Part shown: positions 6,151 through 29,893 of the stretch, piece after piece
How the letters are laid out: each line of letters starts with the position of its first letter
Numbering within the stretch: position 1 is the stretch's first letter
Virus record (IMG/VR): IMGVR_UViG_3300010210_000031
Location: 1 to 29,893 of that record
From: a virus
Strand: one strand, 5' to 3'
Length of the DNA stretch: 29,893 bases
The notes under the pieces: model-generated
Database searches by the model: none
The model's input: only the letters and a program-made list of their open reading frames with translations
Told to the model about the DNA's origin: nothing
Translations under genes and position numbers: made by a program

Positions 6151-6165
6151 TTTGGTTGCGGGGAT
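6151..6165. repeat. Left attachment site (att) of the island
   Basis: TTTGGTTGCGGGGAT is identical to 29874-29888 at the right edge. The minus-strand reading, ATCCCCGCAACCA, is the 3' end of an initiator tRNA including its encoded CCA. Only 13 bases of tRNA are duplicated and the rest of the tRNA is absent, as expected for the att copy left on the far side of an island integrated at a tRNA 3' end. Confidence 0.75.
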
Positions 6166-6230
6166 GCGCGATGAACTTGTCCTTTTTCAGCAGGATAAGT
6201 TGGTTGCGGGAGTGCGCTCTAAACTTGTCC
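6152..6230 (+). repeat. Two 31-bp direct repeats at the island's left end
   Basis: 6152-6182 and 6200-6230 match at 26 of 31 positions and are offset by 48 bases. Both begin TTGGTTGCGGG and end AACTTGTCC. The first copy contains the att core. They may be recombinase binding arms or the scar of a second integration event in the same site. Confidence 0.65.
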
Positions 6231-11438: not shown

Positions 11439-12155
11439 TTAGGCCATCACCTGCTCTAAGCGCTCCTTCCGCTTTTTCCAGTCTGGCATGACACGTTCAA
11501 GGAAATCGAGGAAAGCAGGGCCGTGGTTCGGTTCGGCAATGTGGCACAGCTCGTGGGTGATGACGTAGTCGATGGCGTCAACCGGCGCCTGCACAAGCCG
11601 TGTGTTCAGCATCAGCCGACCGGCAGGCGACATCGATCCCCAGCGCTGGCGGATCTGGCGCACAATGATGCCTTTCGGTCTGTAGGCCTCCGGATCGGGG
11701 AAGCGCTTCAGGCACTCTTCCAGCCGCTCCCTGAACTTCACGCTCGCGCGCTGCCTGTACCACCCTTCCACCATCTCGCGGGTTATTTCCGGGCGGCGCG
11801 GCGCGTGGGTCTGAACGACCAGGAAACCGCGTATAAGCTTCACATTCGCCTGAACGTGATGAACGACTTTCAAACGATATTGGCGACCGAGATAAAGGTG
11901 GGTTTCGCCGGGTACGTATTGCCGATCCGGCGTGCGCGGCATGAACTGCTGAAAGTAGCGCTGCTGCCGAAGAACCCATGCGGCACGTTTGCGGACCTTT
12001 TCGGTGATAGCCTCCATGGTGGCGTCCGGCGGGGCCGCCACGACGACCTGCGTATCCGGTTCGACGGCGATCTCAAGCGTTTTACGAGACCGTCGCACGA
12101 CAACGAACACAATGGGATCGGAACCGTACAGGATTTCGCCCCGTTCCATACTCAT
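11439..12155 (-). CDS. M48-type (YgjP/DUF45) metallopeptidase, last gene of the hsd operon
   Basis: 238 residues. The C-terminal zinc motif is H-E-L-C-H-I-A-E-P-N-H (HExxH with a third His), preceded by R-W-G-S-M-S-P-A-G-R-L-M-L-N-T-R, the family signature; relatives are YgjP-like zinc peptidases. The start ATG at 12155 overlaps the HsdR stop (ATGA), so it is the distal member of the operon. Genes of this family are often found directly after hsdR, where the role is not established; proteolytic control of HsdR is one possibility. No signal peptide, so probably cytoplasmic. Confidence 0.9.
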   Translation of the reverse strand: MSMERGEILYGSDPIVFVVVRRSRKTLEIAVEPDTQVVVAAPPDATMEAITEKVRKRAAWVLRQQRYFQQFMPRTPDRQYVPGETHLYLGRQYRLKVVHHVQANVKLIRGFLVVQTHAPRRPEITREMVEGWYRQRASVKFRERLEECLKRFPDPEAYRPKGIIVRQIRQRWGSMSPAGRLMLNTRLVQAPVDAIDYVITHELCHIAEPNHGPAFLDFLERVMPDWKKRKERLEQVMA

Positions 12156-15100: not shown

Positions 15101-15367
15101 GCCCTTGATCCGGTCGGGCGTCGGCTTCAGCCGCCGCAGAGCCTCGTGGGCATCCTCCAGATCAAAGGGGTAGTCGGTGCCCCGGTGGGAAAACCGGTTG
15201 ATCTTGAGCGTCTGCGCGACAAGAACGTCGTCGAGCGTCACCCCACGCAACCGCCCGCCGCGCAAGGCCAGCGCCTGCGCCTGCGAAAGCGGCTGAAACC
15301 CCATCGCCACCAGCATCTGCATGGCGGGGATTTGCGACTGATGTTTTTCGGCGGGGTTGAAGTTCAT
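12152..15367 (-). CDS. hsdR: Type I restriction enzyme, R (motor/nuclease) subunit
   Basis: 1071 residues, full length for HsdR. The N-terminal endonuclease domain has the PD-(D/E)xK-type residues D153, E167 and K169 (C-D-I-V-A-F then V-I-E-N-K-R-P). The translocase follows: Walker A H-T-Q-G-S-G-K-S at 338-345, D-E-S-H at 438-441, L-G-F-T-G-T-P at 468-474, and a late helicase motif L-L-T-G-F-D-A-P-R-N with Q-A-I-A-R-V-N-R. The C-terminal third is helical and would bind the M2S complex. R subunits cut unmodified DNA after ATP-driven translocation, and need HsdM and HsdS. The start at 15367 overlaps the kinase stop by ATGA. No break is seen, so the restriction activity is probably intact. Confidence 0.96.
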   Translation of the reverse strand: MNFNPAEKHQSQIPAMQMLVAMGFQPLSQAQALALRGGRLRGVTLDDVLVAQTLKINRFSHRGTDYPFDLEDAHEALRRLKPTPDRIKGLRATNQEIYDTLVLGTTISKTIAGDSKSYSFRYIDWGHPENNAYHVTVEYSVERTGSTETKRCDIVAFVNGIPFIVIENKRPTQDLKKADSQLIGYQGEDSIPHLFHFAQMLMSMNRAEARFATVGTPKKFWQTWRDSEDDDAEIAALANRPMTDAEKDAVFTGDFEGARGYFEEMGTAGDRAVTAQDRTLHALCRPARLLDLIRRFTVFDGGERKIARHQQYFSIRAAVERVKHDDVDGRRKGGVIWHTQGSGKSLTMVMLARALALDPDIPNPRLMIVTDRDDLDVQIKGTFKSCEMEPIRAKSGGHLLNLIRDRKPLVTTIVNKFDTATRTGVAPDEDKNLFVLVDESHRTQSGRRGGYGTFAIKMRRLLPKACYLGFTGTPLLKKERNTLATFGGLIHKYPIDEAVADEAVVPLLYEGRMVEQQVSGPALDPWFEKLCAGLTDQQRADLKRKYARMEVLGKTSQVIRAKAFDISEHYRQHWQGTGFKAQLVAPSKLAAIRFKEVLDEIGHVSSAIVISPPSENEGNEEVDKESKDRVRAFWKEMMDRYGSEDEYNKQLIGAFKGSGHPEILIVVSKLLTGFDAPRNTVLYVCKPLREHNLLQAIARVNRLFEADDVEKQFGFIIDYEGLLGELDKALTTYSAFEGYEPGDVANTVHDIREEIRKLPQLHNQLWDLFNPVKNKKDMEQFEVYLADEALRHDFYDRLRAFSRCLHIALSSEKIYDVFEENKIERMKQDWKQFQELKKSVQLRYQETIDQKEYEPKIQKLLDDHVTAQPAQTIIETVNINDPNALKAVVKETGVTDASKADRIASATRRAITENMDADPAFYKHFSEMLEETIKEYREKRLSEQQYLKNVIDLASRMANKDRGKHVPQAIRDDEDGQAFFGILSGPMKETGGDALSEDTVADIALAVIDIIKSRHIVGVWSNDIVENSIRNAIDDYFFDVVRDELGIHLSIETMDDLQSRLMDLARARFPG

Positions 15368-16440
15368 TTTCCGGTCACCACAAATTTTTTGAAGTCTGCG
15401 ATGATCTTGTTCGCCTGTTGCTGCGTCAGGCCACGCTTGCAGAACTTGGTGAGGCGCTGTGTATTGCCTGAGGACACATTGCGTTTAATGCTGGTTACGT
15501 CGAGCTTCCCGCCTGGAACCGGTGAGACTGAGTACGAGAACTCACAGGTCTTGCATATACCGACTTCTTTCCCAGATGCGTCGACGGTCCAGTATCCCGA
15601 GTAGTCAAGCTTTTCCAGCGCCCTCCGCATCTCGAGGGCGCTGGAATACCGTTGAGCTGGATCAGGATGAACGGCCTTCAAGATGACCCGCCGAACCGCC
15701 GCGGGGATATGGCACCCGAAGTCTTTCGCCTGGAGCAGCTTCCCTGACGCCACATCTTGAGCGTATTGCGTTGGACCAATTCTAGCCCAGTTTGCCCGCA
15801 GGTGCTCTAGGTGGATCAGCAGTCGAGCCAGCGTCATCCCGACCTGAAAGATGTCGGAACTGATGCCGATATTGCCCGTAGCCAAGACTTCAGGTGCTCG
15901 GTGGAAAACATAAGAGGATGGTGCCATAACCGGCGCGCTATTGGACGAAATGCCGGTGATCCCATAGTCGGATAGCATAGCCTGTTGCTGCGACCCCAGC
16001 AGGATGTTCCCCGGCTTAATGTCGTTGTGATAGAAGTTGCGGGCATGGAGATATTCCAGCCCCTGAAGGATATCTCGAGCGATCTGGAGGACTGCTGGCA
16101 GAGGCAGGTAGCCAGCCGGATTGGCCAACGTCTCAACCGAGCCGTTTGGCTGGTAGTCCATGGCAAGAATGACGACGTGATCTCCAAAGACTTGCACCAC
16201 ATCCGCCTGATGGACATAGACGAGATTGTTGTGTGCGAGTCGATTGCCGATCTGAGCTTCGCGCAGACGCTGATCCACCGAAACTCCCGGCTGTAGGATC
16301 TTGACTGCGTAGTCGCGCTGGACGGCCAGGTCGCGAGCAAGCCAGACCTCACCGAAGCTGCCCGCGCCAATCTTTCTGATAAGCTGGTACTTGTAGAGTC
16401 TCGCGCCGGGGGTAAGGACAACGGGGACGAGTTGGGTCAT
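15364..16440 (-). CDS. Ser/Thr protein kinase embedded in the hsd operon
   Basis: 358 residues from the ATG at 16440, which overlaps the preceding stop (ATGA); an in-frame codon at 16461 is also possible. Hanks-type kinase motifs are present: glycine loop G-A-G-S-F-G at 25-30, Lys47 in Y-A-V-K-I-L, Glu61 in helix C, catalytic loop Y-H-N-D-I-K-P-G-N-I-L (Asp140, with Asn replacing the usual Arg), S-D-Y-G at 157-160 in place of DFG, and A-P-E at 182-184. It therefore looks catalytically competent, with a non-RD catalytic loop. After the kinase lobe (about residue 290) comes an 70-residue tail with a C-K-T-C pair and a Lys-rich end, of unknown role. No membrane segment, so it is soluble, unlike PASTA or receptor kinases. 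Its placement between HsdS and HsdR is unusual. Confidence 0.9.
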   Translation of the reverse strand: MTQLVPVVLTPGARLYKYQLIRKIGAGSFGEVWLARDLAVQRDYAVKILQPGVSVDQRLREAQIGNRLAHNNLVYVHQADVVQVFGDHVVILAMDYQPNGSVETLANPAGYLPLPAVLQIARDILQGLEYLHARNFYHNDIKPGNILLGSQQQAMLSDYGITGISSNSAPVMAPSSYVFHRAPEVLATGNIGISSDIFQVGMTLARLLIHLEHLRANWARIGPTQYAQDVASGKLLQAKDFGCHIPAAVRRVILKAVHPDPAQRYSSALEMRRALEKLDYSGYWTVDASGKEVGICKTCEFSYSVSPVPGGKLDVTSIKRNVSSGNTQRLTKFCKRGLTQQQANKIIADFKKFVVTGK

Positions 16441-16904
16441 AGATTCCGCAGCCTCCACCACGCCGCATTCACGGCGTCCGCCATCTTATTGTCCCAATAC
16501 TTGTCAGTTCTACCGACGCGATTTTCGGCATGCTGCTTTGTGTCCTTGCTGGTCGTCTGCATGGAGGCATAGATCTTAAGCTCGACCGGCATTCCGCTAT
16601 GCGCACAGGCGAGAACAATGGCGGCATCGGAATGAGCCGACTTGCGCTTCGCTTTCGTGTCGTTCTGCGTGTATTCGTTCTGTTTTATAATCACTCTCAC
16701 GACGTCGGGGTGAGCATCTAAGATGGCCAAGACTTCGCGATACAGCCAGTCCAACCTTTCGGCGTCTGCGTCCTCCCCGATCGATACGGGGACGGACAGC
16801 TTATTGTCGCCCGCTGCGTTCTCCAACGTGTAGACGCCCCCCATTTCGGACACCACTGCATAGCGGGGAGCCTTTGGGTCACCGCGAAATCCGAGAACCT
16901 TCAT
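16437..16904 (-). CDS. RNase H/RuvC-fold-like protein, unknown function
   Basis: 155 residues. The ATG at 16904 is chosen because GAGGAGG lies about eight bases upstream and it overlaps the hsdS stop by ATGA. It opens with strand M-K-V-L-G-F-R-G-D-P (Asp9), followed by a second strand (Y-A-V-V-S-E). A later strand carries V-R-V-I-I-K-Q-N-E-Y (Glu77). Then K-R-K-S-A-H-S-D-A-A-I-V-L-A-C-A-H-S-G-M-P-V resembles the helix and strand that follow in RuvC-like resolvases, and the C-terminus has M-A-D-A-V-N-A-A (Asp143), the position of the last acidic ligand. The acidic spacing suggests an RNase H-fold nuclease, but this is fold-level inference. It is coupled to the kinase that follows, so the two probably act together. 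Confidence 0.75.
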   Translation of the reverse strand: MKVLGFRGDPKAPRYAVVSEMGGVYTLENAAGDNKLSVPVSIGEDADAERLDWLYREVLAILDAHPDVVRVIIKQNEYTQNDTKAKRKSAHSDAAIVLACAHSGMPVELKIYASMQTTSKDTKQHAENRVGRTDKYWDNKMADAVNAAWWRLRNL

Positions 16905-18175
16905 GCCAAAACCTCCTCTGAATTCACGCGCCACTCCCCGGTCAGGAGTTTTTGCATGAGACCGCGTTTTTGGCGCTTGAGGACATCAATCTGTTGTTCA
17001 AGAGCATCAATTTCTGCCTTTGACGTGCGAATGACTTCTGCAATGGCTCTTTGCTCCGGGAGTGGCGGCACCGGAAAGGGCAGCTTTGAAAATTCATTCC
17101 AACGGAGACTGCCCCGCCGATCAACTGACGCGCTGGTACTGACTTCAAAAATATGCCGATACAGAGTCGTTTTCAGAACCGCAATCGCGTATTCAACATC
17201 CACCCGCTTCTTGTGGAACCGGAAAACGGTGTATATTGGACTGACCAACCCTATATTAATGATATTTTGTAGTCCAATTGAGCCCTCTTCAATATGATTA
17301 CTCGGGAACCCGAAATCATTGCGGTAGATTTTTTTGTATCCTGACAGATCAGAGCTATAGACCTGCTTCTTAAAATACTCCAGAGATCTAACGAACCCGT
17401 CGTGCTTCGAGCAGGAGAGCACCTCGCCAATCTCCCCATTGCTGGCGCGCTCCGATATTTCGGTGGCGAGTGCTCCAATCGGTTCACAGTTCCATGACTC
17501 GGGCAATGTGAACCACCGATGCCGATGACTCCTTTCGCCTTCCCGAAACTGCTCCAGTTGCCGCAAACCAAAAATTATTTCGTGCGTCAGCCCGAGATAA
17601 AGAGTGTGTTTGCGCGCCCGAAGCGCCTCCAGCTTCTCGATCGCGTCGTCCCAGGTGCGCAGGATTTCGGTGATTCTCACCTGTTCCGACATAGGCGGAA
17701 GGAGGACGGGGAAAGCCTTCAACTGCGTGGAGTTAATGCTGGCGAGGTTCGTACTTTGTTTAGAAGATCCTTGAAAATACCTCTTCCCATACGATGAAGC
17801 GGCCTGCAAGGCGAGAAACTCAGGAAGCAAAAAGGCACGATCAGGGCGCACCGCAAACACATGATTCTGATGCAAACAGAGATCTATTTGCCCCTTCCAC
17901 ACGGCTCCCCTGCCAAGTTTGTCGAAATCCCCCCCCTCAGTAAAAAGAACATCACCGGACCGAAGAGCGTGCCTCTGTATATAACGTGCCTCCACCTGAA
18001 TTCTCTTGACTTCTTGAAGATCAATATAGCCGTCTTGGACATTGGCGACACGGAGATAAGGCAGCGATACTGCCGATCCATTGATCTCTTTGCCTTTGGC
18101 AATACCCGTTTGGATCTCGGCCACTTCGGCCAGCTTACAGACGTTCCAGTCGTGGGGAACTGTATGATTATGCAT
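16901..18175 (-). CDS. hsdS: Type I restriction-modification specificity subunit (full length)
   Basis: 424 residues from ATG 18175, with AAAGGGGGG upstream and an eight-base overlap with the RhuM-like stop. Two target-recognition domains (about residues 1-160 and 215-370) are each followed by a conserved helix: L-P-P-M-S-E-Q-V-R-I near 159 and P-P-L-P-E-Q-R-A-I-A near 370, with long coiled-coil spacers. HsdS determines the two half-sites recognised by the complex. TRDs are variable, so the sequence cannot be predicted. Part of the second TRD is more AT-rich than its neighbours, as is common for exchanged recognition domains. Confidence 0.93.
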   Translation of the reverse strand: MHNHTVPHDWNVCKLAEVAEIQTGIAKGKEINGSAVSLPYLRVANVQDGYIDLQEVKRIQVEARYIQRHALRSGDVLFTEGGDFDKLGRGAVWKGQIDLCLHQNHVFAVRPDRAFLLPEFLALQAASSYGKRYFQGSSKQSTNLASINSTQLKAFPVLLPPMSEQVRITEILRTWDDAIEKLEALRARKHTLYLGLTHEIIFGLRQLEQFREGERSHRHRWFTLPESWNCEPIGALATEISERASNGEIGEVLSCSKHDGFVRSLEYFKKQVYSSDLSGYKKIYRNDFGFPSNHIEEGSIGLQNIINIGLVSPIYTVFRFHKKRVDVEYAIAVLKTTLYRHIFEVSTSASVDRRGSLRWNEFSKLPFPVPPLPEQRAIAEVIRTSKAEIDALEQQIDVLKRQKRGLMQKLLTGEWRVNSEEVLA

Positions 18176-19193
18176 CACGCCCCCCTTTCTTCGGGACGGA
18201 TGCCGTGTCAGCAATCCGCTGCAACTCCTCCAGTTCGTCCACCTGCTCGGCGGCGGCGCGGTCGGCGTCCTTGCGGGCGAGGTCGAAGGTGGCGTAGCGC
18301 TGATGGGCGATCTGTTCGGCCTGCCGGGCGGAGACGGTTCCGGCGTTGCGCAGGATGGGCAGTTCGTTCCCGGCCAGGAAGTTGTCGAGGATCGGTTCCC
18401 ATTCCGCGAGGCGCATGGTCTGGCGGCGCCTGGCCCGGAAGTCGGCGGTATCGAGGAACATGGTCACGATCTGGTTCAATTCGCTGATCTCGGGTTCGCC
18501 GAGGTAGTTCTTGGCGACGGTCACATCCGCCTTGCGCACGCGCTTGCCCTTCTTCGACGTCAGGCCCATGTCCGGCGCGGCTGGATCGGCGCGCTCAACA
18601 ATGAGCTCCCCGGCGGTGTGGCCGGTCACCGCGTAGAGCATCTTGTTCTGGATTTTGGCGTAGAAGTCCTGAACGGCCTGCGCGTTGGAGGCGTAGTCCT
18701 CGCTGAGGGCCAGAATGTCGCGGACCTTCTGATACACCCGCGCTTCGGACGCCCGGATATCGCGAATCCGCGCGATGAGTTCTTCGAAATAGTCGGCAGC
18801 GGGGTCCTTCAGGCGGGCATCGTTCATGGCGAAGCCCTTGACGAGATATTCCCGCAGGACCGTCGTCGCCCAGCGCCGGAACTGCACCCCGCGCGGGGAG
18901 CGCACGCGGTAGCCAACGGACAGGATGACATCGAGGTTGTAGGCATCGACCTCGCGGGAAACCTCGCGCTTTCCCTCCTGTTGAACTCTCCGGAATTTCC
19001 GGATAGTTGCCGCCGGATCGCACTCCCCGTCCTCGAACAGGTTGCCGATGTGCTCGTTGATCGTGCGGATATCCTTGTCGAACAGCTCGGCCATCTGGCG
19101 CTGCGTCAGCCAGGCCGTGCCGTCAACAGCGCGAAGCTGAATCTCGGTCAGGCCGTCTTCGGTTGTATAGAGGATCAGTTCGCCTTCAGACAT
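18168..19193 (-). CDS. RhuM-family protein in the hsd operon
   Basis: 341 residues from ATG 19193; a GTG at 19199 is in frame and closer to AAGGAG, so the start is uncertain by two codons. It overlaps the HsdM stop by eight bases. The N-terminal half is typical of the RhuM/virulence family: W-L-T-Q-R-Q-M-A-E-L-F, then I-R-T-I-N-E-H-I, F-R-R-V-Q-Q-E-G, N-L-D-V-I-L-S-V-G-Y-R-V-R-S and F-R-R-W-A-T-T-V-L-R-E-Y. The C-terminal half has F-L-A-G-N-E-L-P-I-L and a helical Arg/Glu-rich tail. RhuM-like genes are common inside type I restriction loci between hsdM and hsdS. Their role is unsettled; a DNA-binding accessory or regulator is likely from the N-terminal helix-turn-helix-like region. Confidence 0.9.
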   Translation of the reverse strand: MSEGELILYTTEDGLTEIQLRAVDGTAWLTQRQMAELFDKDIRTINEHIGNLFEDGECDPAATIRKFRRVQQEGKREVSREVDAYNLDVILSVGYRVRSPRGVQFRRWATTVLREYLVKGFAMNDARLKDPAADYFEELIARIRDIRASEARVYQKVRDILALSEDYASNAQAVQDFYAKIQNKMLYAVTGHTAGELIVERADPAAPDMGLTSKKGKRVRKADVTVAKNYLGEPEISELNQIVTMFLDTADFRARRRQTMRLAEWEPILDNFLAGNELPILRNAGTVSARQAEQIAHQRYATFDLARKDADRAAAEQVDELEELQRIADTASVPKKGGRDA

Positions 19194-20703
19194 CGACACC
19201 CAGCTCCTTCAGATGCCCGGCCATGCGCGCGCGCACGTCGGCGAGTTCGGCCTCGATCTTGTCGATCTCCTTTTGCAGGGCGGCGACGTCGATGTCCTCC
19301 TCCGGCTCGAACGTGTCCACATAGCGCGGAATGTTGAGGTTGAAGTCGTTCTCGGCGATCTCCTCGGGGCTGGCGAGGTGGGAGAACTTGTCGATCTCCG
19401 CCCGGTCTCGATACGTGCTCAGGATCTTGTCGATGTGCGCGTCGTCCAGCACGTTGCGGGCCTTGCCGGGGCTGAACTCTTTGCTGGCGTCAATGAACAG
19501 GACGTCGCGCCGGTTCTCATTGGCCCCGCCATCCTCGCGGGAGCGGTCGAAGACCAAAATGGCAACCGGAATGCCGGTGGTGGTGAACAGGTTGGCGGGC
19601 AGGCCGACCACGGCGTCGAGAAGGTTTTCCTCGATCAGCGCCTTGCGGATCCTGCCCTCGGCCCCGCCCCGGAACAGCACCCCATGCGGCACGATGACGG
19701 CGACGCGCCCGCTCTGGCGCTTGGCGATCTCGATCATGTGCGTGATGAAGGCATAGTCGCCCTTGGACTTGGGCGGCACGCCGCGCCAGTAGCGTTTGTA
19801 GGGATCACCTGCGGCATCTTCCGCCCCCCACTTGTCCAGCGAGAACGGGGGATTGGCGACGACGATATCGAATTTCATCAGGTGGTCGCCCTCGATCAGC
19901 GCCGGGCTGTTGAGGGTGTCGCACCATTCGATCCGGGCGGCGTCCTTGGCGTGCAGGAACATGTTCATCCGCGATAGCGCCCAGGTGGCCCCGTTCACCT
20001 CCTGCCCGAACAGGGCGTAGTTGTCGGAGCCGGTGGCCTTGGCGGCCTCGATCAACAGCGAACCGGACCCGCAGGCCGGATCGCAGATCGTGTTGCCCGG
20101 TTCCGGGGCGGCCAGCGCCGCCAGCACGCGGGAGACGGCGGAGGGCGTATAGAACTCCCCGGCCTTCTTCCCGGCATCGGATGCAAAGCGCTCAATCAGA
20201 TAAATGTAGCAGTTGCCGATAATATCCTCCGTGACCCGTGAGGGGCGGAGGTCAAGTTCAGGCTTGTAAAAGTCTTCAAGCATGTTTTTCAGGCGGCGGT
20301 TGCGGTCCTTGACCCGCCCGAGATTGGGTTCGGAGTTGAAGTCGATGTTCCGGAATACGCCTTCCAGCTTGGTCCGGTTTTTATCCTCGATCTGCTCCAG
20401 CGCCATGTTGATGAGCTCGCCGATGTTGGCGGCGTCGCGCTGTTCATAGAGGTCGTAGAAGCTGGCTCCCTCGGGCAGCACAAAGCGTTCCCGCTCCAGG
20501 CGGCGGCGGATGCGGGCCTCCTCCCCGGCGAACTGTTTGCGGTAGCTCTCAACGTGGTCGTTCCAGTGGTCCGAAATGTATTTCAGGAACAGCATCACAA
20601 GGATGTAATCCTTGTACTGCCCTGCATCGACAACGCCCCGAAATGTGTCGCACGCCGCCCAAGCGGTTTGGTTAATCTTTTCTTGCTGAATTTTGTCGTT
20701 CAT
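19186..20703 (-). CDS. hsdM: Type I restriction-modification methyltransferase subunit
   Basis: 505 residues. Start ATG 20703 with AAAGGAA upstream. An N-terminal helical domain (residues 1-160) is followed by the N6-adenine methyltransferase core: F-Y-T-P-S near 185-188, AdoMet motif I D-P-A-C-G-S-G at 208-214, and the catalytic N-P-P-F at 284-287. HsdM methylates adenine in the sequence set by HsdS and, with HsdR, forms the restriction complex. Length and motif order are normal and the frame is open throughout. A 12-bp hairpin at 20727-20755 sits just before it and may tune expression of HsdM and the genes after it. Confidence 0.97.
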   Translation of the reverse strand: MNDKIQQEKINQTAWAACDTFRGVVDAGQYKDYILVMLFLKYISDHWNDHVESYRKQFAGEEARIRRRLERERFVLPEGASFYDLYEQRDAANIGELINMALEQIEDKNRTKLEGVFRNIDFNSEPNLGRVKDRNRRLKNMLEDFYKPELDLRPSRVTEDIIGNCYIYLIERFASDAGKKAGEFYTPSAVSRVLAALAAPEPGNTICDPACGSGSLLIEAAKATGSDNYALFGQEVNGATWALSRMNMFLHAKDAARIEWCDTLNSPALIEGDHLMKFDIVVANPPFSLDKWGAEDAAGDPYKRYWRGVPPKSKGDYAFITHMIEIAKRQSGRVAVIVPHGVLFRGGAEGRIRKALIEENLLDAVVGLPANLFTTTGIPVAILVFDRSREDGGANENRRDVLFIDASKEFSPGKARNVLDDAHIDKILSTYRDRAEIDKFSHLASPEEIAENDFNLNIPRYVDTFEPEEDIDVAALQKEIDKIEAELADVRARMAGHLKELGVDV

Positions 20704-20726
20704 TCAAATTTCCTTTCGGGTTCTAT

Positions 20727-20755
20727 CTTGGGGCGAACACGTGGTTCGCCCCAAG
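20727..20755 (-). promoter_or_regulatory. Perfect 12-bp hairpin between the GIY-YIG-like gene and hsdM
   Basis: CTTGGGGCGAAC (20727-20738), a 5-base loop ACGTG and GTTCGCCCCAAG (20744-20755) form a perfect stem in the only real gap of the operon (59 bases). On the transcribed minus strand it is followed by ATAGAACC rather than a T-run, so it is more likely a processing or stabilising hairpin or attenuator than a classical terminator. Confidence 0.6.
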
Positions 20756-20762
20756 ACATTTC

Positions 20763-21068
20763 TCAGATAAGTCCACAGGGCGGATTGAACTGCGTCCGCA
20801 ACTGCCGCTCAATCACCATTCGATTGGCGTGGTCAGCGTAGATCGCCGCGACGCCGAACTCAGCGTAGCCCTGGCCACGCCAACAGGGTTTGCGGTCGTG
20901 GTTTTCAACACGATCGCGAACGTTCTGTGATTCTCCGACATCAACGACACTCCAGTTTGAATACTGGTCGTTGCGTCCAAGAATCACATAGACACCGGAT
21001 TGGTGTTCGAGCGGTTGCGTATTGCCGAAAGGACCATCGGCCTGATAGCCTGCGATTTGGATAGGCAT
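20763..21068 (-). CDS. GIY-YIG-like small protein
   Basis: 101 residues from ATG 21068, eight bases after the half-HsdS stop. The pattern S-G-V-Y-V-I-L (GIY position) and V-V-D-V-G-E-S (YIG position), then R-D-R-V-E-N-H-D-R-K-P-C-W and a late I-E-R-Q-L-R-T-Q-F-N-P-P-C, fits a compact GIY-YIG nuclease-like domain; the Glu in IERQL and the Asn in FNP are plausible active-site positions. Confident as a fold suggestion, weaker as an active nuclease because the second motif is divergent. It is the second gene of the operon, before hsdM. Role unknown: it could nick DNA or be an inactive DNA-binding relative. Confidence 0.65.
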   Translation of the reverse strand: MPIQIAGYQADGPFGNTQPLEHQSGVYVILGRNDQYSNWSVVDVGESQNVRDRVENHDRKPCWRGQGYAEFGVAAIYADHANRMVIERQLRTQFNPPCGLI

Positions 21069-21076
21069 GATTCACC

Positions 21077-21727
21077 TCATTTGTTCGCCTGTTCCGATTT
21101 GACCGTCGGAGGACCAGTCCGGCGGCCACCCAAAGGCCCAGCCTCATTCCCGTGAGGCTGGGTTTTTCGCACCCGCTCAAGCAGGGCGAAATTCACGAAC
21201 TTCTGCTTCTTCTCGGCCAAAACATTTAGAAGCGCGCTCTCCCGATCAGACAGAGACGCAATTTCCACAATCCGGTTTTGAGTGGAAATATCTGGAATAT
21301 CGAGATCAATATTTTCTAAACTCGACTTCGGAATCATTCGCATATTCGTCCCGCGCGCGCATTCGTCAAAGTAACGTTGTGCGGGGGCTTGGTTAACAAT
21401 CCATGCCAAAAACTTTGGGGTGATAATATCCTTGTTCGGCCGCAGGATAATCAAGGGCAGTAGAATTAGAAGCGGCTCATTAAGGTTTTCGGGAATGGCT
21501 GCGGCAACTGTTTGATCCCCGCGCGGCCTGAACAAAACGTCCCCGGAGCGGGCGAAATATCGGTCAGCGATACCATCGCTTGCCATTCTGGTCAGATTCG
21601 ATGGATCAATTCCGCGCAGGGACACATCGCCCATCTGTACAACGGGAACACCGCCGCGCTCGACCGGCTCAAGCCGCCCGCGCAGGGTGAGGCCTGTTTG
21701 AATAGATGAGATTGCCGATAGGCGCAT
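21077..21727 (-). CDS. Half-size HsdS-like specificity protein, first gene of the operon
   Basis: 216 residues, start ATG 21727 with AGGAGA upstream. It has a single target-recognition domain with S-subunit hallmarks: S-S-I-Q-T-G, V-V-Q-M-G-D-V, S-G-D-V-L-F-R-P-R-G-D near residue 80, F-L-A-W-I-V-N and P-K-S-S-L-E-N-I-D-L-D-I-P, then a helix (I-V-E-I-A-S-L-S-D-R-E-S) as in HsdS spacers. Half-size S proteins can dimerise to give symmetric recognition, or add a second specificity. A full-length HsdS is encoded 3 kb downstream. The last 30 residues are Gly/Pro/Arg-rich, unlike HsdS, and are coded over a plus-strand terminator-like hairpin, so the 3' end may have been replaced. Confidence 0.8.
   Translation of the reverse strand: MRLSAISSIQTGLTLRGRLEPVERGGVPVVQMGDVSLRGIDPSNLTRMASDGIADRYFARSGDVLFRPRGDQTVAAAIPENLNEPLLILLPLIILRPNKDIITPKFLAWIVNQAPAQRYFDECARGTNMRMIPKSSLENIDLDIPDISTQNRIVEIASLSDRESALLNVLAEKKQKFVNFALLERVRKTQPHGNEAGPLGGRRTGPPTVKSEQANK
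21137..21167 (+). terminator. Terminator-like hairpin inside the 3' end of the half-HsdS gene
   Basis: CCCAGCCTCA (21137-21146), loop TTCCCG, TGAGGCTGGG (21153-21162) and TTTTT (21163-21167). It is a textbook plus-strand intrinsic terminator, yet no plus-strand gene ends here. It may be a relic from an earlier neighbour and mark the replaced end of the half-HsdS gene. Confidence 0.6.
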
Positions 21728-22287: not shown

Positions 22288-22710
22288 TCATGCCCTTTGC
22301 ATCACATGCCCGGCGAAGCGGGCGAAGGCATAGACCATGACACCGGCGATCAGATAGGGGACAGGGGCGGAGACCTCGAACCAGTAGGGCAGCGCGGCCA
22401 GCCCCAGGACGAGGGTCCAGGCTCCGAACCGCTCCAGAACACCCGGGCCACCGACGGCACGGGTCCGGCCATCCGGGTTTCGGATGATGGTTTTCTGGGG
22501 GTAGCGGCGCTCACGGGCGCGCCGCCAAGCGCGCGCACGATTCCACAGAATGAGGCCGCAATAGATGGCCAGCCACGGCGCGGTGTACAGCATCGCGAGG
22601 TGAAGCGCCTGAGGCGGCGGATACAGGAACAGGCCGTAGTGCCCCGCGATCTGGGCGAGACTTCCCCAGGCTCCGAACGCGGTGAAGATGAGACCGATTG
22701 TCGTCCGCAT
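22288..22710 (-). CDS. Small membrane protein, last gene of the VirD4-like operon
   Basis: 140 residues. ATG 22710 is chosen over an upstream in-frame start because GGGGAGG lies upstream. Four hydrophobic segments are visible (about residues 4-25, 35-55, 92-110 and 114-132) with a central Arg-rich loop (R-A-R-A-W-R-R-A-R-E-R-R-Y), so an inner-membrane protein is likely. The start lies inside the last codons of the coupling-protein gene in the other frame or just at its end, so the two are coupled. No family is recognised. Since the coupling protein lacks the usual N-terminal membrane helices, this could be its membrane anchor; this is inference. Confidence 0.75.
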   Translation of the reverse strand: MRTTIGLIFTAFGAWGSLAQIAGHYGLFLYPPPQALHLAMLYTAPWLAIYCGLILWNRARAWRRARERRYPQKTIIRNPDGRTRAVGGPGVLERFGAWTLVLGLAALPYWFEVSAPVPYLIAGVMVYAFARFAGHVMQRA

Positions 22711-22726
22711 GATCGGGCCTCCCCTT

Positions 22727-24298
22727 TTATCCGACGCCGACAAAGGGGGCCAAGGCACGCATGACATTCAGCCCGGGGCGCGTGAAGTCCACGGCGCGCG
22801 GGACCGGGCGTCTCCGGTAGTTTGCCGGGACATCGAAAACGGGCCTGCCCCGACAATCCCGGAACCGGGCATCGAGAAAATACGGCACTCGATAACAGGC
22901 GGCAGGGTTCGCGTTCGCCAGAACGAGGATCTGCACAGCGGGATGCAGGGTCATGATCTCGTCTGGCATCATCAGGGCGCGACCTCCGGCTTGGTCGCCC
23001 TGGGCGAAATAGTCTGGATCCCCGACCAGGGTTTGCCGCCGGATGGCGGTTTCGTAGCTGAGCTGTTCGAACGTCCCGGTGCCGCACAGTTTGCTGAGAT
23101 ATTCAGCGGTGAGGAGATCCCGCGTGCCGAAGGCCTGAATGACGGCGGCGTTGGCGATGAAGGTCTGCCAGCGTTCGCCATAGATGCTCTTGGCCTGAGC
23201 GAAGTCCTGAAAGATGGGATGCAATTGCATCCCCGATCCGGCCAGAACGCCGAAAGCGTCGAGCAGGACATCCAGTTTTCCGACCGCGCCCATCTCGTCC
23301 AGCATGAAAAGGACGGATGGGGTCGGTTTGACGGGTATTTGGTTGATCGCGTCGATGGCTTGGGCGATCAGCAACCGCAGAAGCCGCCCGTGGGTCCGCA
23401 GACGCTCGGGCGGCAGCACGAGATAGATCGTCAGTGGTTCCGAAAGATCGGCGAAGTCAAAATCGCTGACGGACAGACTCTCCCGAACCTGCTCGCTTTC
23501 CAGGAAGTGTGTGTTCTGCTGAGCGGTGGCCAGGATATCGCCGTACTGACGTTCGGGCTTGGACAAAATCCGCCCGGCGGCGGCGCGGACATAGCGGTTT
23601 GCACTGTGCAGCATGCCGGGGCGCGTGCCGTCCTCGTCGCCCGCGACATAGTCGCGGAATTCAGCGGGCGGCATGTTCAAAAGATCGCGCACACGCCCGA
23701 GAGTGCGTGTCTCGCTTTCTCGGACGTCCGATGTGACCTGAAGGATCAGGCCCGTGATGAAGGCTCGGGCCTCGTCGGACCAAAACGGAGAACTGTGCGT
23801 TTCGCCGATGACCAGGGCATCGGCGAGTAGGCAGGCATCGTCATAGAAACTTGGGCTGTCCGGTTGGATGGCGTCCAAAGGATTGAACCGCGCGGGTGTG
23901 CGCCCGAGGAGAGGAGAAACGGCGTTCATGGGATCGAAGATGAACGTCTCTTGCCGGAGACCGGCTTCCCGAAAGGAGCACGTCGCGGCGGCGACTTCTC
24001 CGCGCGGGTCCAGCACGATTGCCGATCCGGGATAGGTGAGCAGCGCGGGAATGCAGGTCGATACCCCCTTGCCGGAGCGGTTGGGGGCGACGGTCAGCAT
24101 GTGCCGCGCACCGCCGTAGGTCACGGGCACGGCCCCGTGACCCCGGTCTTCCGATGGCAGATAGCCGAAGACGTGAGGGCCGCCGGGGCCGTAACCGCGT
24201 TCGGCAAGGTGATGACGGTCCGCGAAGCGGGCGGTGCCATGCAGGCCCGGGTCCCGCTGGTAGATCCATCGCCGGTTTTCCGCGTTGGCTTGGCTCAT
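22727..24298 (-). CDS. VirD4/TraG-family coupling-protein-like ATPase
   Basis: 523 residues from ATG 24298, which overlaps the VWA gene stop by ATGA. Early residues G-T-A-R-F-A-D and A-P-N-R-S-G-K-G-V (Walker A, 71-79) are typical of VirD4/TraG, as are I-V-L-D-P-R-G-E and the Walker B F-M-L-D-E-M-G (331-337). Other conserved parts: F-N-P-L-D-A-I, T-H-F-L-E-S, F-Q-D-F-A-Q-A and G-T-R-D-L-L-T-A-E-Y-L. Coupling proteins deliver relaxase-DNA to a type IV channel. Unlike VirD4 and TraG there is no N-terminal membrane pair, as the Walker A begins at residue 71. No VirB-like genes are in the island, so it would need a helper, or does something other than conjugation. Confidence 0.93.
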   Translation of the reverse strand: MSQANAENRRWIYQRDPGLHGTARFADRHHLAERGYGPGGPHVFGYLPSEDRGHGAVPVTYGGARHMLTVAPNRSGKGVSTCIPALLTYPGSAIVLDPRGEVAAATCSFREAGLRQETFIFDPMNAVSPLLGRTPARFNPLDAIQPDSPSFYDDACLLADALVIGETHSSPFWSDEARAFITGLILQVTSDVRESETRTLGRVRDLLNMPPAEFRDYVAGDEDGTRPGMLHSANRYVRAAAGRILSKPERQYGDILATAQQNTHFLESEQVRESLSVSDFDFADLSEPLTIYLVLPPERLRTHGRLLRLLIAQAIDAINQIPVKPTPSVLFMLDEMGAVGKLDVLLDAFGVLAGSGMQLHPIFQDFAQAKSIYGERWQTFIANAAVIQAFGTRDLLTAEYLSKLCGTGTFEQLSYETAIRRQTLVGDPDYFAQGDQAGGRALMMPDEIMTLHPAVQILVLANANPAACYRVPYFLDARFRDCRGRPVFDVPANYRRRPVPRAVDFTRPGLNVMRALAPFVGVG

Positions 24299-25329
24299 GG
24301 TTGGCACGTATCGGGAGGGGCTGGGGTCAAGACTTGTTGCGTGCCGTAGGCATCCCCGAGTGTGTCCAGCACGCGGGTGAGTGAGGCCCTCACTTCGCCC
24401 CGATCCTGGATGAAGTAGTCCGCCAATCCCTGAAGATGCTTAGCGTCGTGCTGGCCGAGCCAGTAGACCAGAGTGCGGGTTTCCCCGTTGTCTGCCCGGA
24501 CCTGGCTGTGCAGGACGTCGGCCTGCCAAGCTCCGGCGGTTATGACGCCGTCCGTGATGACCACCACCATCTTTTGCCAGCCGTCCAGATCCGGATTGGC
24601 ATAGGACAGGTAGGCGTCCGATAGAGGTTGATAGATATCCGTCGCGCCGCCCGTCGGAAGGGTATCGGGCAATGTGACGGCTCCGCACGGTTCCCCGTCC
24701 TGGGGCGTGTAGGCTGTCATGTCTTCCGCGAAGCTGGCGACCGTGCAGGTCGCCTGATCGGGCAAGAGAGACAGGAAGTGCCGTGTGGTCTCCAGAACAT
24801 CATCGGCCACGTTTTGCATGGACCCCGACCGGTCAAGCAGGAGGGTGACGGCAATCTGTGGGGCCATGTCCCGGACCGACTGGAGGGTGTGGCAAACAGG
24901 GGAGCCATCGGGGCGCGCCCAAATCAGGCGCTCTGCCGGAATCGGGGCATACCGACCCTCGGTATTGCGATGGGCGATCACGAGACTTCCATCCGGATGG
25001 GATCCTGCGAGTTCAATCGTCCCGTCGTCCACACCAACAAACCCGCCCGCATTCGGATCTATCACGACATCGGCGATGGGAAGGCCGGACGGGGTGCGCA
25101 AGTCCAGCCGCGCCAAGAGGTCCCGAAGCTCGGTGGGGTTGGCGGAACGGGCATCGGGCAGGATTTCGACGGTGAGGCGTCCCGCGAAGTCCTCTGCCGA
25201 CCGGATGGGGCGCGCCATCGCGGTGCTGGTATCGTATTCGGACACGATGATCGGCCCTGGCGTTGCCGCCCCGGGGACGAAAAGCACAAGTGCGAGGGTT
25301 CCGAAGGCCGTCATGTTCTGCTTGGGCAT
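24295..25329 (-). CDS. Exported von Willebrand factor A domain protein
   Basis: 344 residues; ATG 25329 lies two bases past the upstream stop, with GGAGGGAC in between. A short hydrophobic N-terminus (residues 6-24, T-L-A-L-V-L-F-V-P-G-A-A) suggests Sec export. The VWA domain has a complete MIDAS: D-R-S-G-S at 166-170, Thr230 in G-G-A-T-D, and Asp260 in V-I-T-D-G. Before it is a separate domain of about 150 residues. VWA domains bind a metal and a protein ligand; the partner is unknown. Its coupling to a VirD4-like ATPase is uncommon and hints at an envelope complex. Confidence 0.88.
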   Translation of the reverse strand: MPKQNMTAFGTLALVLFVPGAATPGPIIVSEYDTSTAMARPIRSAEDFAGRLTVEILPDARSANPTELRDLLARLDLRTPSGLPIADVVIDPNAGGFVGVDDGTIELAGSHPDGSLVIAHRNTEGRYAPIPAERLIWARPDGSPVCHTLQSVRDMAPQIAVTLLLDRSGSMQNVADDVLETTRHFLSLLPDQATCTVASFAEDMTAYTPQDGEPCGAVTLPDTLPTGGATDIYQPLSDAYLSYANPDLDGWQKMVVVITDGVITAGAWQADVLHSQVRADNGETRTLVYWLGQHDAKHLQGLADYFIQDRGEVRASLTRVLDTLGDAYGTQQVLTPAPPDTCQP

Positions 25330-25331
25330 CG

Positions 25332-26045
25332 TCAGTCCCTCCGTTCCAGGATCGGTCCTTTGTTCAGAACAGCCTCACTTTGCGCGGACCCAAGGAATGT
25401 GAAGGTCAGTCCCCCGGCATTGGCCATTTCGAGAATGCCCTCACGCTCCATGTGTTCAGCCCAGACATGTTCCTGGGAGGGATGAACGCCGAAGACCTTG
25501 AATGTGCTGATGGGGCGCTCGCGCAAAAACCGTCCGAGTTCCAGCCCGGACGGAACCGGCTGCGGCAAGGTGATGGGCGGCCCCTGGTCACAGGGGAACG
25601 GGGCCACGATCAGCGGGGCGTGAATCAGAACGTGAACATCCTGCGTCCCGGCAACACGGATGTTCTGCTCCACCTAGCGGAGCGCACGGGGTAGATCACT
25701 GCACCGGTCATTCAGCGCGATCAGGTCCAGGATTGCTCCGGCGTCCCGGGTGAGATCACGCGGCGTTCCGCTCCAGACGGTGCGTGGGTCCGATGTTAGG
25801 ATCAGGTCGATCCGGGCATTGCGGTAGGCGCGTCCGGACAGGGTCGTCAGACCCCGGATCAGGTTCTTGATCTGAACGGCTGCCGCCGGGTCCTGAACGG
25901 TACCGCCATTGTCGATGACGGCCTCGATCAGGATTTCGGGGTTGGCAATGTCGTCCCCGGCGCGGGCTGCGTCTTGAGATACCAGGGAGAGGGCGGCGAC
26001 GGTTCCGATGAGAAGGGTCCGGCGCGAAAGCTGGTTGGTGCGCAT
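25332..26045 (-). pseudogene. Exported protein split by an in-frame TAG stop
   Basis: From ATG 26045 (AAGGA upstream) the frame codes 123 residues with an N-terminal S-R-R-T-L-L-I-G and hydrophobic stretch ending A-R-A-G (Tat- or Sec-type signal), then TAG at 25674-25676. The next codon, GTG at 25673, continues in the same frame for 113 more residues to TGA 25332-25334. The two parts read smoothly across the stop (A-L-R stop V-E-Q-N-I-R-V), and the second part has its own strand-rich sequence (V-H-V-L-I-H-A-P-L-I-V-A-P-F-P) with no signal. A single protein of about 237 residues broken by one substitution (for example CAG to TAG) is the simplest reading. The alternative is two coupled genes. 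No family is recognised; TAG also serves as a true stop elsewhere here (for example 26051-26053). Confidence 0.65.
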
Positions 26046-26050
26046 CACGA

Positions 26051-26632
26051 CTATCCTTCCTTGTCCAGAATGGTGAACCACAGGCGCGCGGTCGCCAGGG
26101 CCAGGGCATGGTTCACGATCACCACCACCACGGCGCTCAGGATCGCCAGTTCGCGGTGATCCCGGAGCACGGTGGCGGCCTGGCCTTGCGTGAAAGGGTT
26201 TTCGAGGAAGCTGTCGATCAGCATCATGGTGTTGGTCAGCTCCAGGGCGATCATGAGTCCCCAGAACCCCGCCAGGGCGGCGGCATAGACACAGTTCGGT
26301 TTGTAGGCGAAGAACTCGCCCGGTGCCACGATGACGCGTTCGCGCATCAGGTACAGAAAACCGAAGACAGGGGCCGCGACGGTCGCGGCGGCCAGGAACA
26401 AGGCCAGCAGGTGGTTGATGGTCATGTCCGGGACAGCGGCGAAGAGCCATCCCAACCCCGCAATGTCCACGAGGTAGGTTCCCGGCATCAGGGTCATGGT
26501 CTGGGAATAGGTGACGTAGTGCATCAGCGTCGCGGCGAACTCCGCAGCACCAGCCAGGGTCAACTTGACGATCTGGATGGTGTTCGGTCCCCCCGGCGCC
26601 TGCTCCAGCACAATCTTCTTCGAAGCGGGCAT
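26051..26632 (-). CDS. Multi-pass membrane protein
   Basis: 193 residues from ATG 26632 with GGGAGG upstream, stopping at TAG 26051, five bases before the exported gene. Four hydrophobic stretches are visible: around residues 50-68, 73-95, 113-135 and 160-180 (L-G-W-L-F-A-A-V, L-L-A-L-F-L-A-A-A-T-V, A-A-L-A-G-F-W-G-L-M-I-A, A-I-L-S-A-V-V-V-V-I-V). It has no recognised family. It belongs to the VirD4-like operon, so it may form the membrane part of the same complex. Confidence 0.8.
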   Translation of the reverse strand: MPASKKIVLEQAPGGPNTIQIVKLTLAGAAEFAATLMHYVTYSQTMTLMPGTYLVDIAGLGWLFAAVPDMTINHLLALFLAAATVAAPVFGFLYLMRERVIVAPGEFFAYKPNCVYAAALAGFWGLMIALELTNTMMLIDSFLENPFTQGQAATVLRDHRELAILSAVVVVIVNHALALATARLWFTILDKEG

Positions 26633-26719
26633 CCAAGCCTCCCATGTGAAACGGGCGGTAACGTCGCAACGCTACCGCCCGCAGAGGCCCAGCCCGGGCA
26701 GAACCCGGGCAGTTTCTGG

Positions 26720-27160
26720 CTACTCATTTCTTTGAATATGCTGATCCATATCGTTGTCATTTGCTGCAGCCTCCGCAAAAGTGGCCGCCAGTGCCGGATG
26801 AAGGATCCTGAAGTGGAGGTCTATCAGACGCACCCGCTCCATCGTCCTTGCCTGCAGGCGGGTGTATGGGCTTCGGATAAAGTCGTCGATCCAGCGTGTG
26901 TCCGCCCCTTCCGGGAAATGTGCGTCGACTTCCGGCAATTCGTAGTGACGACCGCCTGGGACGGTGAGCCTGCCGTCAAAATCGCGGAACGTATCCGCAA
27001 GCACGTCTCGCCACCGGCGACGGGAAACCCGGAGCCGGACCATCGCAACTTTGAGATTTCCAAGGTAGATCGGGTCGCGGAGTTCGGAGTTGGATGCGAC
27101 CCGGATCGGACGTTGATAGGCGCGGTCGAGACGTTGTCCGCAGTAAGGGCAGCGGTTCAT
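26720..27160 (-). CDS. Hypothetical protein with N-terminal zinc-ribbon motif
   Basis: 146 residues, starting at ATG 27160 (GAGGG upstream); upstream in-frame codons read non-coding-like and are left out. The N-terminus M-N-R-C-P-Y-C-G-Q-R-L has one CxxC pair, typical of a small zinc finger, although the second pair is not obvious. The rest is basic and polar (R-L-R-V-S-R-R-R-W-R-D-V-L; E-R-V-R-L-I-D-L-H-F-R-I-L-H). It ends 88 bases before the membrane protein and is the first gene of the operon, after a dyad-rich leader. DNA binding or regulation of the operon is conceivable but not shown. Confidence 0.65.
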   Translation of the reverse strand: MNRCPYCGQRLDRAYQRPIRVASNSELRDPIYLGNLKVAMVRLRVSRRRWRDVLADTFRDFDGRLTVPGGRHYELPEVDAHFPEGADTRWIDDFIRSPYTRLQARTMERVRLIDLHFRILHPALAATFAEAAANDNDMDQHIQRNE

Positions 27161-28255: not shown

Positions 28256-29820
28256 CCCGTGCCGCGATTTATGCGCGATATTAAACCGATATGCAGCGAG
28301 AAGCCTCTATTGAGGATCAGGTCCGCATCTGCGCCGAACGTGCTGAACGTGAAGGCTGGACCGTCGTCGAGAATTTCACCGACTTTGGAAAATCCGGCAG
28401 CACGATGCTGCGCGCTGGCATGCAGCAAATGATCATGCGCGCGCAGGCGGGCGATTTTGACATTGTCCTGGCTGAAAGCATCGACCGCCTGTCCCGCGAT
28501 CAGGAGGACATCGCCGGTCTTTATAAGCGACTCGTGTTTCGAGGGATCCGGATCGTTACCCTCGCGGAGGGTGAGGTGAATGAACTTCACATCGGCCTCA
28601 AGGGCACGATGGGTGCTCTGTATCTGAAGGATCAGGCGGACAAAACCAGGCGTGGCTTGCGTGGGCGTGCCGAAGCCGGAAAGTCGGCTGGCGGCATCAC
28701 GTATGGTTATGATGTTGTCAAAGCGCTCGACGCGAACGGCGAACCGATCCGGGGCGAACGCAAGATCAATCCCGAACAGGCCAAGATCGTCGAGCGGATT
28801 TTCCGTGAGTACGTCGCGGGACGCTCACCGAAAGGGATTGCTGCACGGCTGAATAAGGAGCGGGTGCCCGGTCCGACCGGGAGGGATTGGGGCCAGAGCA
28901 CGATCAACGGCAATCGGGAGCGCGGCACCGGCATCCTCAACAATGAACTCTATATCGGTCGGCAGGTCTGGAACCGGCTGCGCTATATCAAGGATCCGGA
29001 CACCGGGAAGCGCGTGTCCCGCCCGAACCCGGAAAGCGAATGGGTCATCCACGATGTGCCGGAGCTGCGCATCATTGACCAGGAGCTTTGGGACGCGGTT
29101 CGGGCGAAGCAAAAGACGCTCATCCGTCCCCAGGAACATTTCTGGAAGGGTCAGCGCCCGAGGAATCTTTTCTCGTATCTCCTCAAATGCGGGGAATGCG
29201 GCGGCGGGTTCTCAATGGTCTCGACAAATCATCTGGGCTGCTCCAACGCCCGGAACAAAGGGACGTGCGAAAACCGGTTGACCATCAAACGCGAAGACCT
29301 GGAAGAGGCCGTTCTCGGGGCACTCCGGAACCATCTCATGGACCCGGAAATGTGTGCCGTCTTCTGCGAGGAATACACCCAGGGGATTAATCGTCTTCGC
29401 ACCGAGCACAACGCGGCGCTGATCGGGTATCAAGCCGAATACGACAAGGCGACGCGAGAACTTGACCGCCTGATCGATATGGTCGTTCAGGGCGCGCCTC
29501 TGGAACGTGTCAACAGCCGCATGCACGAACTCGAAGATCGCCGGGCGGAGTTGAAAGAGCTTATCGAGACGACACCGGAAGCGACGGTGCGTCTGCACCC
29601 GAGTATGGCGGATCGGTACCGCCAGGAGGTCACGGACCTGATCGCCGCATTGAACGACGACAACCATCGCACCGAGGCGGCGGCGCTCATCCGGGACCTT
29701 GTCGAAAAGATCGTCCTCACTCCGGACGAATATCGCTCACGGCTCATTGTTGATCTCGTGGGCGATCTGGCTGGCATTCTGGACTTGGCGCACAGGGACA
29801 AAAAAGCCAAGGCCGCTGGC

Positions 29821-29855
29821 CAAAAAACAGAAGGGCCGCCCCATGGGGACGGCCC
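29821..29855 (-). terminator. Intrinsic terminator of the tRNA-fMet gene
   Basis: Minus-strand reading from the tRNA end: GGGCCG(T)CCCC, loop, GGGGCGGCCC, then TTCTGTTTTTTG. The stem is 29833-29855. It lies inside the 3' end of the recombinase coding sequence and replaces the ancestral terminator now stranded at 6117-6147. Confidence 0.65.
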
Positions 29856-29873
29856 GAATAATCGCAAGGACAA

Positions 29874-29888
29874 TTTGGTTGCGGGGAT
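29874..29888. repeat. Right attachment site (att) of the island
   Basis: TTTGGTTGCGGGGAT, identical to 6151-6165. It overlaps the tRNA 3' end (29876 onward) and the recombinase C-terminal codons. Confidence 0.75.
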
Positions 29889-29893
29889 AGGAT
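29876..29893 (-). tRNA. Initiator tRNA-fMet, 3' end only (cut by window edge)
   Basis: The minus strand reads ATCCTATCCCCGCAACCA: T-stem end, acceptor strand CCCCGCA, discriminator A and an encoded CCA. The A at position 72, opposite C1 in initiators, and the overall 3' end match bacterial tRNA-fMet (Escherichia coli ends CCCCCGCAACCA). The anticodon lies outside the window, so identity is inferred from the 3' end alone. Confidence 0.65.

What the first reader, a model, noticed from the sequence alone, without database searches (positions are those of the whole stretch)
22288..27160. VirD4-like ATPase with VWA and membrane proteins but no secretion channel
A minus-strand operon couples a coupling-protein-like ATPase lacking N-terminal membrane helices with an exported VWA protein, two multi-pass membrane proteins, an exported protein and a zinc-ribbon protein. 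No VirB-type gene is present. It could be a minimal mobilization aid using a helper channel, or a transport or defence complex built from a conjugation ATPase.
Basis: partly seen in the sequence, partly recalled or inferred. Interest (0 to 1): 0.65.

Follow-up and report, generated by a model that had tools for sequence, protein, structure and literature searches.

The report
Coupling-ATPase mobilisation module of defence islands
A rare, conserved five-gene set (a DNA-pumping ATPase that lacks its membrane anchor, two membrane proteins and two exported proteins) sits at one end of tRNA-integrated islands that carry a DNA-transfer enzyme and anti-phage systems, and it probably helps these islands move between bacteria through another element's secretion channel.

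Summary
The operon is real. Minus-strand order: 4-helix membrane protein (mem), exported protein (exp), exported VWA protein, VirD4-type coupling ATPase (T4CP) without membrane helices, small membrane protein; no VirB gene. In this copy exp is cut by an in-frame TAG and the element's relaxase is frameshifted. Searches found mem-exp-VWA in nine other alphaproteobacterial genomes, with a T4CP in the same operon wherever flanks allow a check, except on one 14.8-kb contig; four T4CP lineages are involved. The window's T4CP and four others form one clade (100/100), all without N-terminal helices and followed by a small membrane protein; 38 of 39 ordinary relatives have at least two helices. Complete elements share one layout: tRNA, serine recombinase, module, defence cargo (restriction, BREX, Dnd), relaxase-mobC. 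The window's element spans about 6.15-29.89 kb between 15-bp repeats of a tRNA-Met end. Eight of nine carrier genomes lack VirB4 and VirB10, as do many non-carriers. Best reading: mobilisation module of integrative mobilisable elements, a two-part coupling protein plus an envelope complex that docks on a helper channel. Transfer is inferred, not shown.

The parts
22288..22767 (-). small multi-pass membrane protein (likelier start at 22710, ~140 aa); proposed membrane partner of the T4CP
   Evidence: Overlaps or directly follows the T4CP gene; relatives of 140-147 aa in the same place in L136-L139; no Pfam or NCBIfam match; dN/dS 0.16-0.17 among close copies
22727..24307 (-). VirD4/TraG-type coupling ATPase (T4CP), 526 aa, without N-terminal membrane helices
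   Evidence: PF02534 1e-73, PF12696, PF10412; no TM segment; in a 100/100 clade with the T4CPs of L136-L139
24295..25329 (-). exported VWA-domain protein, 344 aa, MIDAS residues DxSxS, T and D conserved
   Evidence: PF13519 1.8e-7; seven relatives aligned with invariant D166, S168, S170, T230, D260
25332..26045 (-). exported protein 'exp' of a family without Pfam name, interrupted by in-frame TAG at 25672-25674; twin-arginine-like N-terminus; two cysteines invariant in the family
26051..26632 (-). multi-pass membrane protein 'mem', 193 aa (4 helices in relatives), no Pfam family
   Evidence: Relatives directly upstream of exp in nine loci
26720..27160 (-). single-CxxC protein of 146 aa upstream; weak relatives near the module in L138 and L139; membership of the module doubtful
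   Evidence: phmmer 4.6e-8 and 6.7e-5
28291..29892 (+). large serine recombinase (integrase), cut off by the window end
   Evidence: PF07508 and PF00239; relatives in L116 (55% identity) and L138, whose 3' ends overlap tRNA-Met
29874..29888 (.). right att repeat TTTGGTTGCGGGGAT, corresponding to the 3' end of tRNA-Met
6151..6165 (.). left att repeat (same 15 bp), with a second, imperfect copy at about 6196-6213
6343..6747 (+). MobC
   Evidence: 31-59% identical to the gene before the relaxase in most T4CP loci
6744..8023 (+). MobA/VirD2-type relaxase, frameshifted near 7155-7157
   Evidence: PF03432 2.8e-14; the two halves match adjacent parts of single relatives
11439..21727 (-). type I restriction-modification cargo (HsdR, HsdS, HsdM) with PD-T4-6-like kinase, PDC-S05 protein and an extra HsdS fragment

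Best explanation
The operon is the transfer module of an integrative mobilisable element (IME) that spans about 6.15-29.89 kb of the window. Shown: T4CP, mem, exp, VWA and the small membrane protein are a conserved, co-oriented gene set under purifying selection. They travel in tRNA-integrated, defence-carrying elements with their own relaxase, MobC and serine recombinase and with no VirB4/VirB10 genes. Inferred: the soluble T4CP receives the relaxase-DNA complex. The small membrane protein, and perhaps mem, replace the missing N-terminal anchor, making a two-part coupling protein. mem, exp and VWA form an inner-membrane/periplasmic complex that fits this coupling protein onto the channel or mating surface of a helper conjugative element, as SGI1 subunits remodel an IncC pore. 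VWA, through its metal site, would be the docking or contact-sensing part.
For: Same gene order in the window, L136-L139, L116, L135 and (T4CP first) L115. The mem-exp-VWA set keeps company with four T4CP lineages: the window clade, L115, L116 and L135. Window-clade T4CPs have no N-terminal helices and a following small membrane gene, against 38 of 39 ordinary relatives with at least two helices. Relaxase is on the same contig in G375, G061, G490, G821, G799 and G966. Recombinase and tRNA lie at the module end. att repeats flank the window element. G821, G799, G966 and G836 have one T4CP each and no VirB4/VirB10. In 27 of 46 ordinary loci the T4CP directly follows a relaxase of the same family, tying this T4CP family to relaxase-borne transfer. 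Literature: some TMD-less T4CPs act with small membrane proteins (TraJ/TraI of pIP501), and another T4CP subfamily needs a ~200-residue membrane partner, TraJ, encoded next to it (PMC7434980); putative IMEs with their own VirD4 exist (PMC5704250); SGI1 remodels the helper pore (PMC5389848).
Against: No experiment. mem, exp and small have no match of known function. The small protein shows no similarity to T4CP membrane domains, so 'anchor' rests on position and co-occurrence. One triad contig (L117, 14.8 kb) has no T4CP. Elements with ordinary T4CPs manage without the triad, so it is not needed for mobilisation in general. Several copies carry damage: window exp and relaxase, L137 VWA, L135 T4CP. 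F-type TraC (PF11130) was not searched.
Confidence: 0.6

Rival explanations
1. Self-sufficient, VirB-independent DNA exporter: T4CP, mem and small form an inner-membrane pump, and exp and VWA form the periplasmic part, so that the element conjugates without a helper.
For: The only T4CP in four carrier genomes, with no VirB4/VirB10 in 8 of 9; conserved envelope proteins under selection.
Against: No outer-membrane component or pilin recognised. Sampled genomes of the order often lack VirB4 too (25 of 40), so its absence in carriers is not unusual (Fisher p=0.24). IMEs need no resident helper between transfers.
Confidence: 0.1
2. The module is itself a defence or exclusion system: a membrane-associated complex that senses or blocks incoming phage or plasmid DNA, with the T4CP-like ATPase as motor.
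For: Beside defence cargo in every element whose cargo was examined; VWA proteins and ATPases are common in defence (general knowledge); ordinary elements of this family lack the triad.
Against: Module proteins match no PADLOC model. The defence neighbours differ in every element while relaxase, recombinase and att layout stay the same. The T4CP keeps the TraM-recognition (PF12696) and AAD-binding (PF10412) matches of DNA-coupling proteins. These elements have no other T4CP next to their relaxase.
Confidence: 0.13
3. Protein export or surface-adhesion module: the T4CP energises export of a protein substrate, or the VWA/exp pair act as adhesins, incidental to DNA transfer.
For: Two exported proteins, one with a conserved metal site typical of adhesion domains.
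Against: Both carry ordinary signal-like N-termini and need no T4CP for export; T4CPs normally need a channel; constant linkage to a relaxase.
Confidence: 0.08

Closest known systems
Ordinary alphaproteobacterial mobC-relaxase-T4CP elements (L013-L066 here) and mobilisable plasmids such as Salipiger pPABY8
   Same: Homologous MobC, relaxase and T4CP in the chromosomal loci; a T4CP with a relaxase and no VirB gene in the annotated half of the plasmid looked at
   Different: Their T4CP has N-terminal membrane helices and often follows the relaxase directly; no mem, exp or small genes
TMD-less T4CPs with a membrane partner (TraJ/TraI of pIP501) and T4CPs with a ~200-residue TraJ-like partner
   Same: T4CP plus separately encoded membrane protein (PMC7434980)
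   Different: Those belong to complete conjugation systems; no VWA or exp pair (own knowledge); no sequence relation of the partners was tested
SGI1 and relatives (IMEs that replace helper pore subunits)
   Same: Helper-dependent island carrying envelope proteins for transfer (PMC5389848)
   Different: SGI1 uses recognisable TraN/TraH/TraG homologues; mem and exp match no Pfam family
Sinorhizobium meliloti pSymB island (L011)
   Same: Serine recombinase, T4CP of 452 aa, relaxase and type I RM in one island
   Different: T4CP of another lineage and no triad

Membership tests
Type IV coupling proteins (VirD4/TraG) | Conserved nucleotide-binding domain with Walker motifs | tested here: met
   PF02534 1e-73; GKG P-loop and LDE Walker B
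Type IV coupling proteins (VirD4/TraG) | N-terminal transmembrane domain (present in most, absent in one recognised subfamily) | tested here: not met
   No N-terminal hydrophobic segment in the five window-clade T4CPs; places it beside the TMD-less subfamily (PMC7434980), so it stays a T4CP but not a canonical VirD4-type one
Type IV coupling proteins (VirD4/TraG) | Binds relaxosome and ssDNA | not testable with these tools
   needs biochemistry
Integrative mobilisable element | Own integrase and att sites | tested here: met
   Serine recombinase, 15-bp direct repeats at 6151 and 29874 corresponding to a tRNA-Met end; tRNAs at the recombinase end of relatives
Integrative mobilisable element | Own relaxase, no complete T4SS | tested here: met
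   MobC and relaxase (frameshifted in this copy); no VirB4/VirB10 in 8 of 9 carriers
Integrative mobilisable element | Is mobilised by a helper | not testable with these tools
   needs mating experiments
Conjugative T4SS (any MPF type) | VirB4-type ATPase and channel subunits | tested here: not met
   PF03135 and PF03743 absent from 8 of 9 carrier genomes; PF11130 not tested
Known anti-phage defence systems (PADLOC-DB 2.0.0) | Module proteins match defence models | tested here: not met
   No match at 1e-3 for the six window proteins and four L136 module proteins

The most novel reading that the evidence does not exclude
mem, exp, VWA and small, together with the TM-less T4CP, form a new minimal DNA-export machine that lets these defence islands conjugate without any VirB-type secretion system.
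Probability: 0.1. Interest if true: 0.93.

Novelty: new variant of a known kind. Interest (0 to 1): 0.55.

Why it matters
Mobilisable islands that ferry anti-phage systems are common, but how they engage a foreign conjugation channel is mostly unknown. Here is a rare gene set that keeps company with four different coupling-ATPase lineages, includes protein families without Pfam names, and in its main clade appears where the ATPase has lost its membrane anchor. It makes a testable question: can a coupling protein be split into a soluble motor and a separate membrane/periplasmic adaptor that sets which helper can be used?

Tried and rejected
VWA, T4CP, mem and exp-profile searches in viral contigs and the VWA scan in genome contigs found no relatives: the short peptide patterns are too strict. 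VWA and exp found nothing in plasmids, and VWA nothing in phages. Homology of the small protein to the T4CP membrane domain: none. Homology of exp to VWA: none by profile comparison; one member has a VWA_2 hit at 0.012. Structure of exp from one sequence with TAG read as a residue: pLDDT 38, not used. C-terminal part of the L116 T4CP resembling the small ORF after the L135 T4CP: E=0.002 in a single comparison, too weak. Lack of VirB4 as a special trait of carriers: 1/9 against 15/40 in the order, not significant; 1/9 against 16/28 carriers of ordinary elements, p=0.02, on a small, uneven sample. TAG recoding rejected: TAG also ends the neighbouring mem gene.

Full report
Observation. The T4CP (22727-24307) matches PF02534 at 1e-73 and the TraG/TraD C-terminal domain PF12696 at 1e-22 and has no hydrophobic segment. 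The VWA protein matches VWA_2 above the cut-off. The exported protein is the front part of a 237-codon reading frame split by an in-frame TAG at 25672-25674; most relatives read straight through. TAG ends the neighbouring mem gene, so recoding is unlikely. The zinc ribbon is a single CxxC below Pfam's cut-off. The window is a 29,893-base virus-collection record.

Which element it belongs to. MobC lies at 6343-6747 and a MobA/VirD2-type relaxase at 6744-8023; the relaxase's two halves match adjacent parts of single relatives, so it is frameshifted near 7155. A serine recombinase runs off the right end. The 15-mer TTTGGTTGCGGGGAT occurs at 6151-6165 and 29874-29888 and corresponds to the 3' end of tRNA-Met, which overlaps the recombinase gene's end in the relatives L116 and L138. 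The element therefore spans about 6.15-29.89 kb; reading by eye, 1-5.9 kb is phage-like flank. Between relaxase and module lies type I restriction-modification with accessory genes.

T4CP relatives. A scan of one genome per species returned 80 loci. In 27 of 46 loci with at least 35% identity, a relaxase of the window's family ends within 600 nt upstream. 38 of the 39 long ones have at least two N-terminal membrane helices. None of these loci holds exp or small; mem gives one marginal hit (E=0.0095), and the VWA profile hits only an Hsp70-VWA fusion in two PVC-bacterial loci.

Module relatives. A protein search for VWA in 393 genomes of one order gave three convincing hits among many generic VWA proteins, all with mem and exp alongside. 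A profile of exp then found six more genomes in 385 of the class and 397 of one family. mem and exp match no Pfam model above cut-off, and exp matches no solved structure. In L136, L137, L138 and L139 the order is mem-exp-VWA-T4CP-small. L116 and L135 have mem-exp-VWA-T4CP with other T4CPs; L115 has T4CP first. L134 breaks off after VWA. L117 (14.8 kb) has the triad without T4CP. dN/dS among L136, L137 and L139 is 0.09-0.23 for all five genes.

T4CP tree. Window, L136, L137, L138 and L139 form a 100/100 clade; L115 and L116 branch elsewhere, and L135 carries a further, frameshifted T4CP. All five in the clade lack N-terminal helices and are followed by a small membrane protein. The small protein shows no similarity to T4CP membrane domains, so the anchor idea rests on position and co-occurrence.

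Element layout. In G966, G821, G799 and G375 a relaxase-mobC pair lies roughly 18-28 kb from the module, on the far side of the cargo, while recombinase and tRNA lie on the near side. Cargo: Dnd/Pbe genes and a ThsB-like TIR (L136, L153), type IIG plus PDC-S06 (L137), type III plus an HKD-SNF2 helicase (L138), BREX (L116). G821, G799, G966 and G836 contain exactly one T4CP. VirB4 (PF03135) and VirB10-type (PF03743) families are absent from eight of nine carriers; in G061 they lie on another contig. As controls, 15 of 40 sampled genomes of the order and 16 of 28 carriers of ordinary elements have VirB4; the difference from carriers is not significant against the order (p=0.24) and weak against ordinary elements (p=0.02).

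Interpretation. Constant linkage to relaxase and recombinase, changing defence cargo, and pairing of the triad with several T4CP lineages point to transfer. TMD-less T4CPs that work with small membrane proteins are known (PMC7434980), MobB of CloDF13 needs its membrane domain for mobilisation by a helper (PMC7431656), a few putative IMEs with their own VirD4 are on record (PMC5704250), and SGI1 shows that an island can carry envelope subunits that remodel a helper's pore (PMC5389848). The module proteins match no known defence model. The proposed mechanism is a soluble motor held by its own membrane partner, with mem-exp-VWA as adaptor to the helper channel. Shown: genes, conservation, linkage, lack of an own VirB4/VirB10-type channel. 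Inferred: anchoring, docking, transfer. Literature searches for T4CP together with VWA turned up no description of this module, within an open-access library only.

Limits. Hydrophobicity was judged with a simple Kyte-Doolittle window. Only two T4SS marker families were searched. The window copy has two damaged genes, which may be decay or assembly error.

Noticed in passing
L055, L058 (and T4CPs of L049-L059): In gut/rumen PVC bacteria (Akkermansia, Lentisphaerae), relatives of this T4CP also lack membrane helices; in the two loci read (L055, L058) they sit in co-oriented operons with tandem Hsp70-like ATPases, one of them (L058:10627-12786) an Hsp70-VWA fusion, plus double-zinc-ribbon proteins. 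Looks like a separate system that I cannot place.
   Followed up: partly
window 6744-8023: The relaxase is frameshifted near 7155-7157, so this copy may be unable to start its own transfer unless the shift is an assembly error.
   Followed up: partly
L137:8171-9355 and L135:11524-13462: Other copies carry damage too: an in-frame TAA inside the VWA gene of L137 and a frameshift in the T4CP of L135.
   Followed up: partly
window 15364-16934: A PD-T4-6-like protein kinase and a 165-aa unknown protein lie between hsdR and hsdS inside the type I operon; a possible accessory defence pair.
   Followed up: no
window 8432-9598: SoFic-like Fic-domain gene next to the relaxase; Fic genes also flank the related relaxase of Peteryoungia (L010).
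   Followed up: no
window 6151-6213: Two near-identical att-like repeats about 45 bp apart at the left end, beside phage-like genes: perhaps tandem integration of two elements at one tRNA gene.
   Followed up: partly
L136, L137, L139: A second recombinase type carries the module at tRNA-Tyr, while the window type sits at tRNA-Met: the module is shared between two integration systems.
   Followed up: partly
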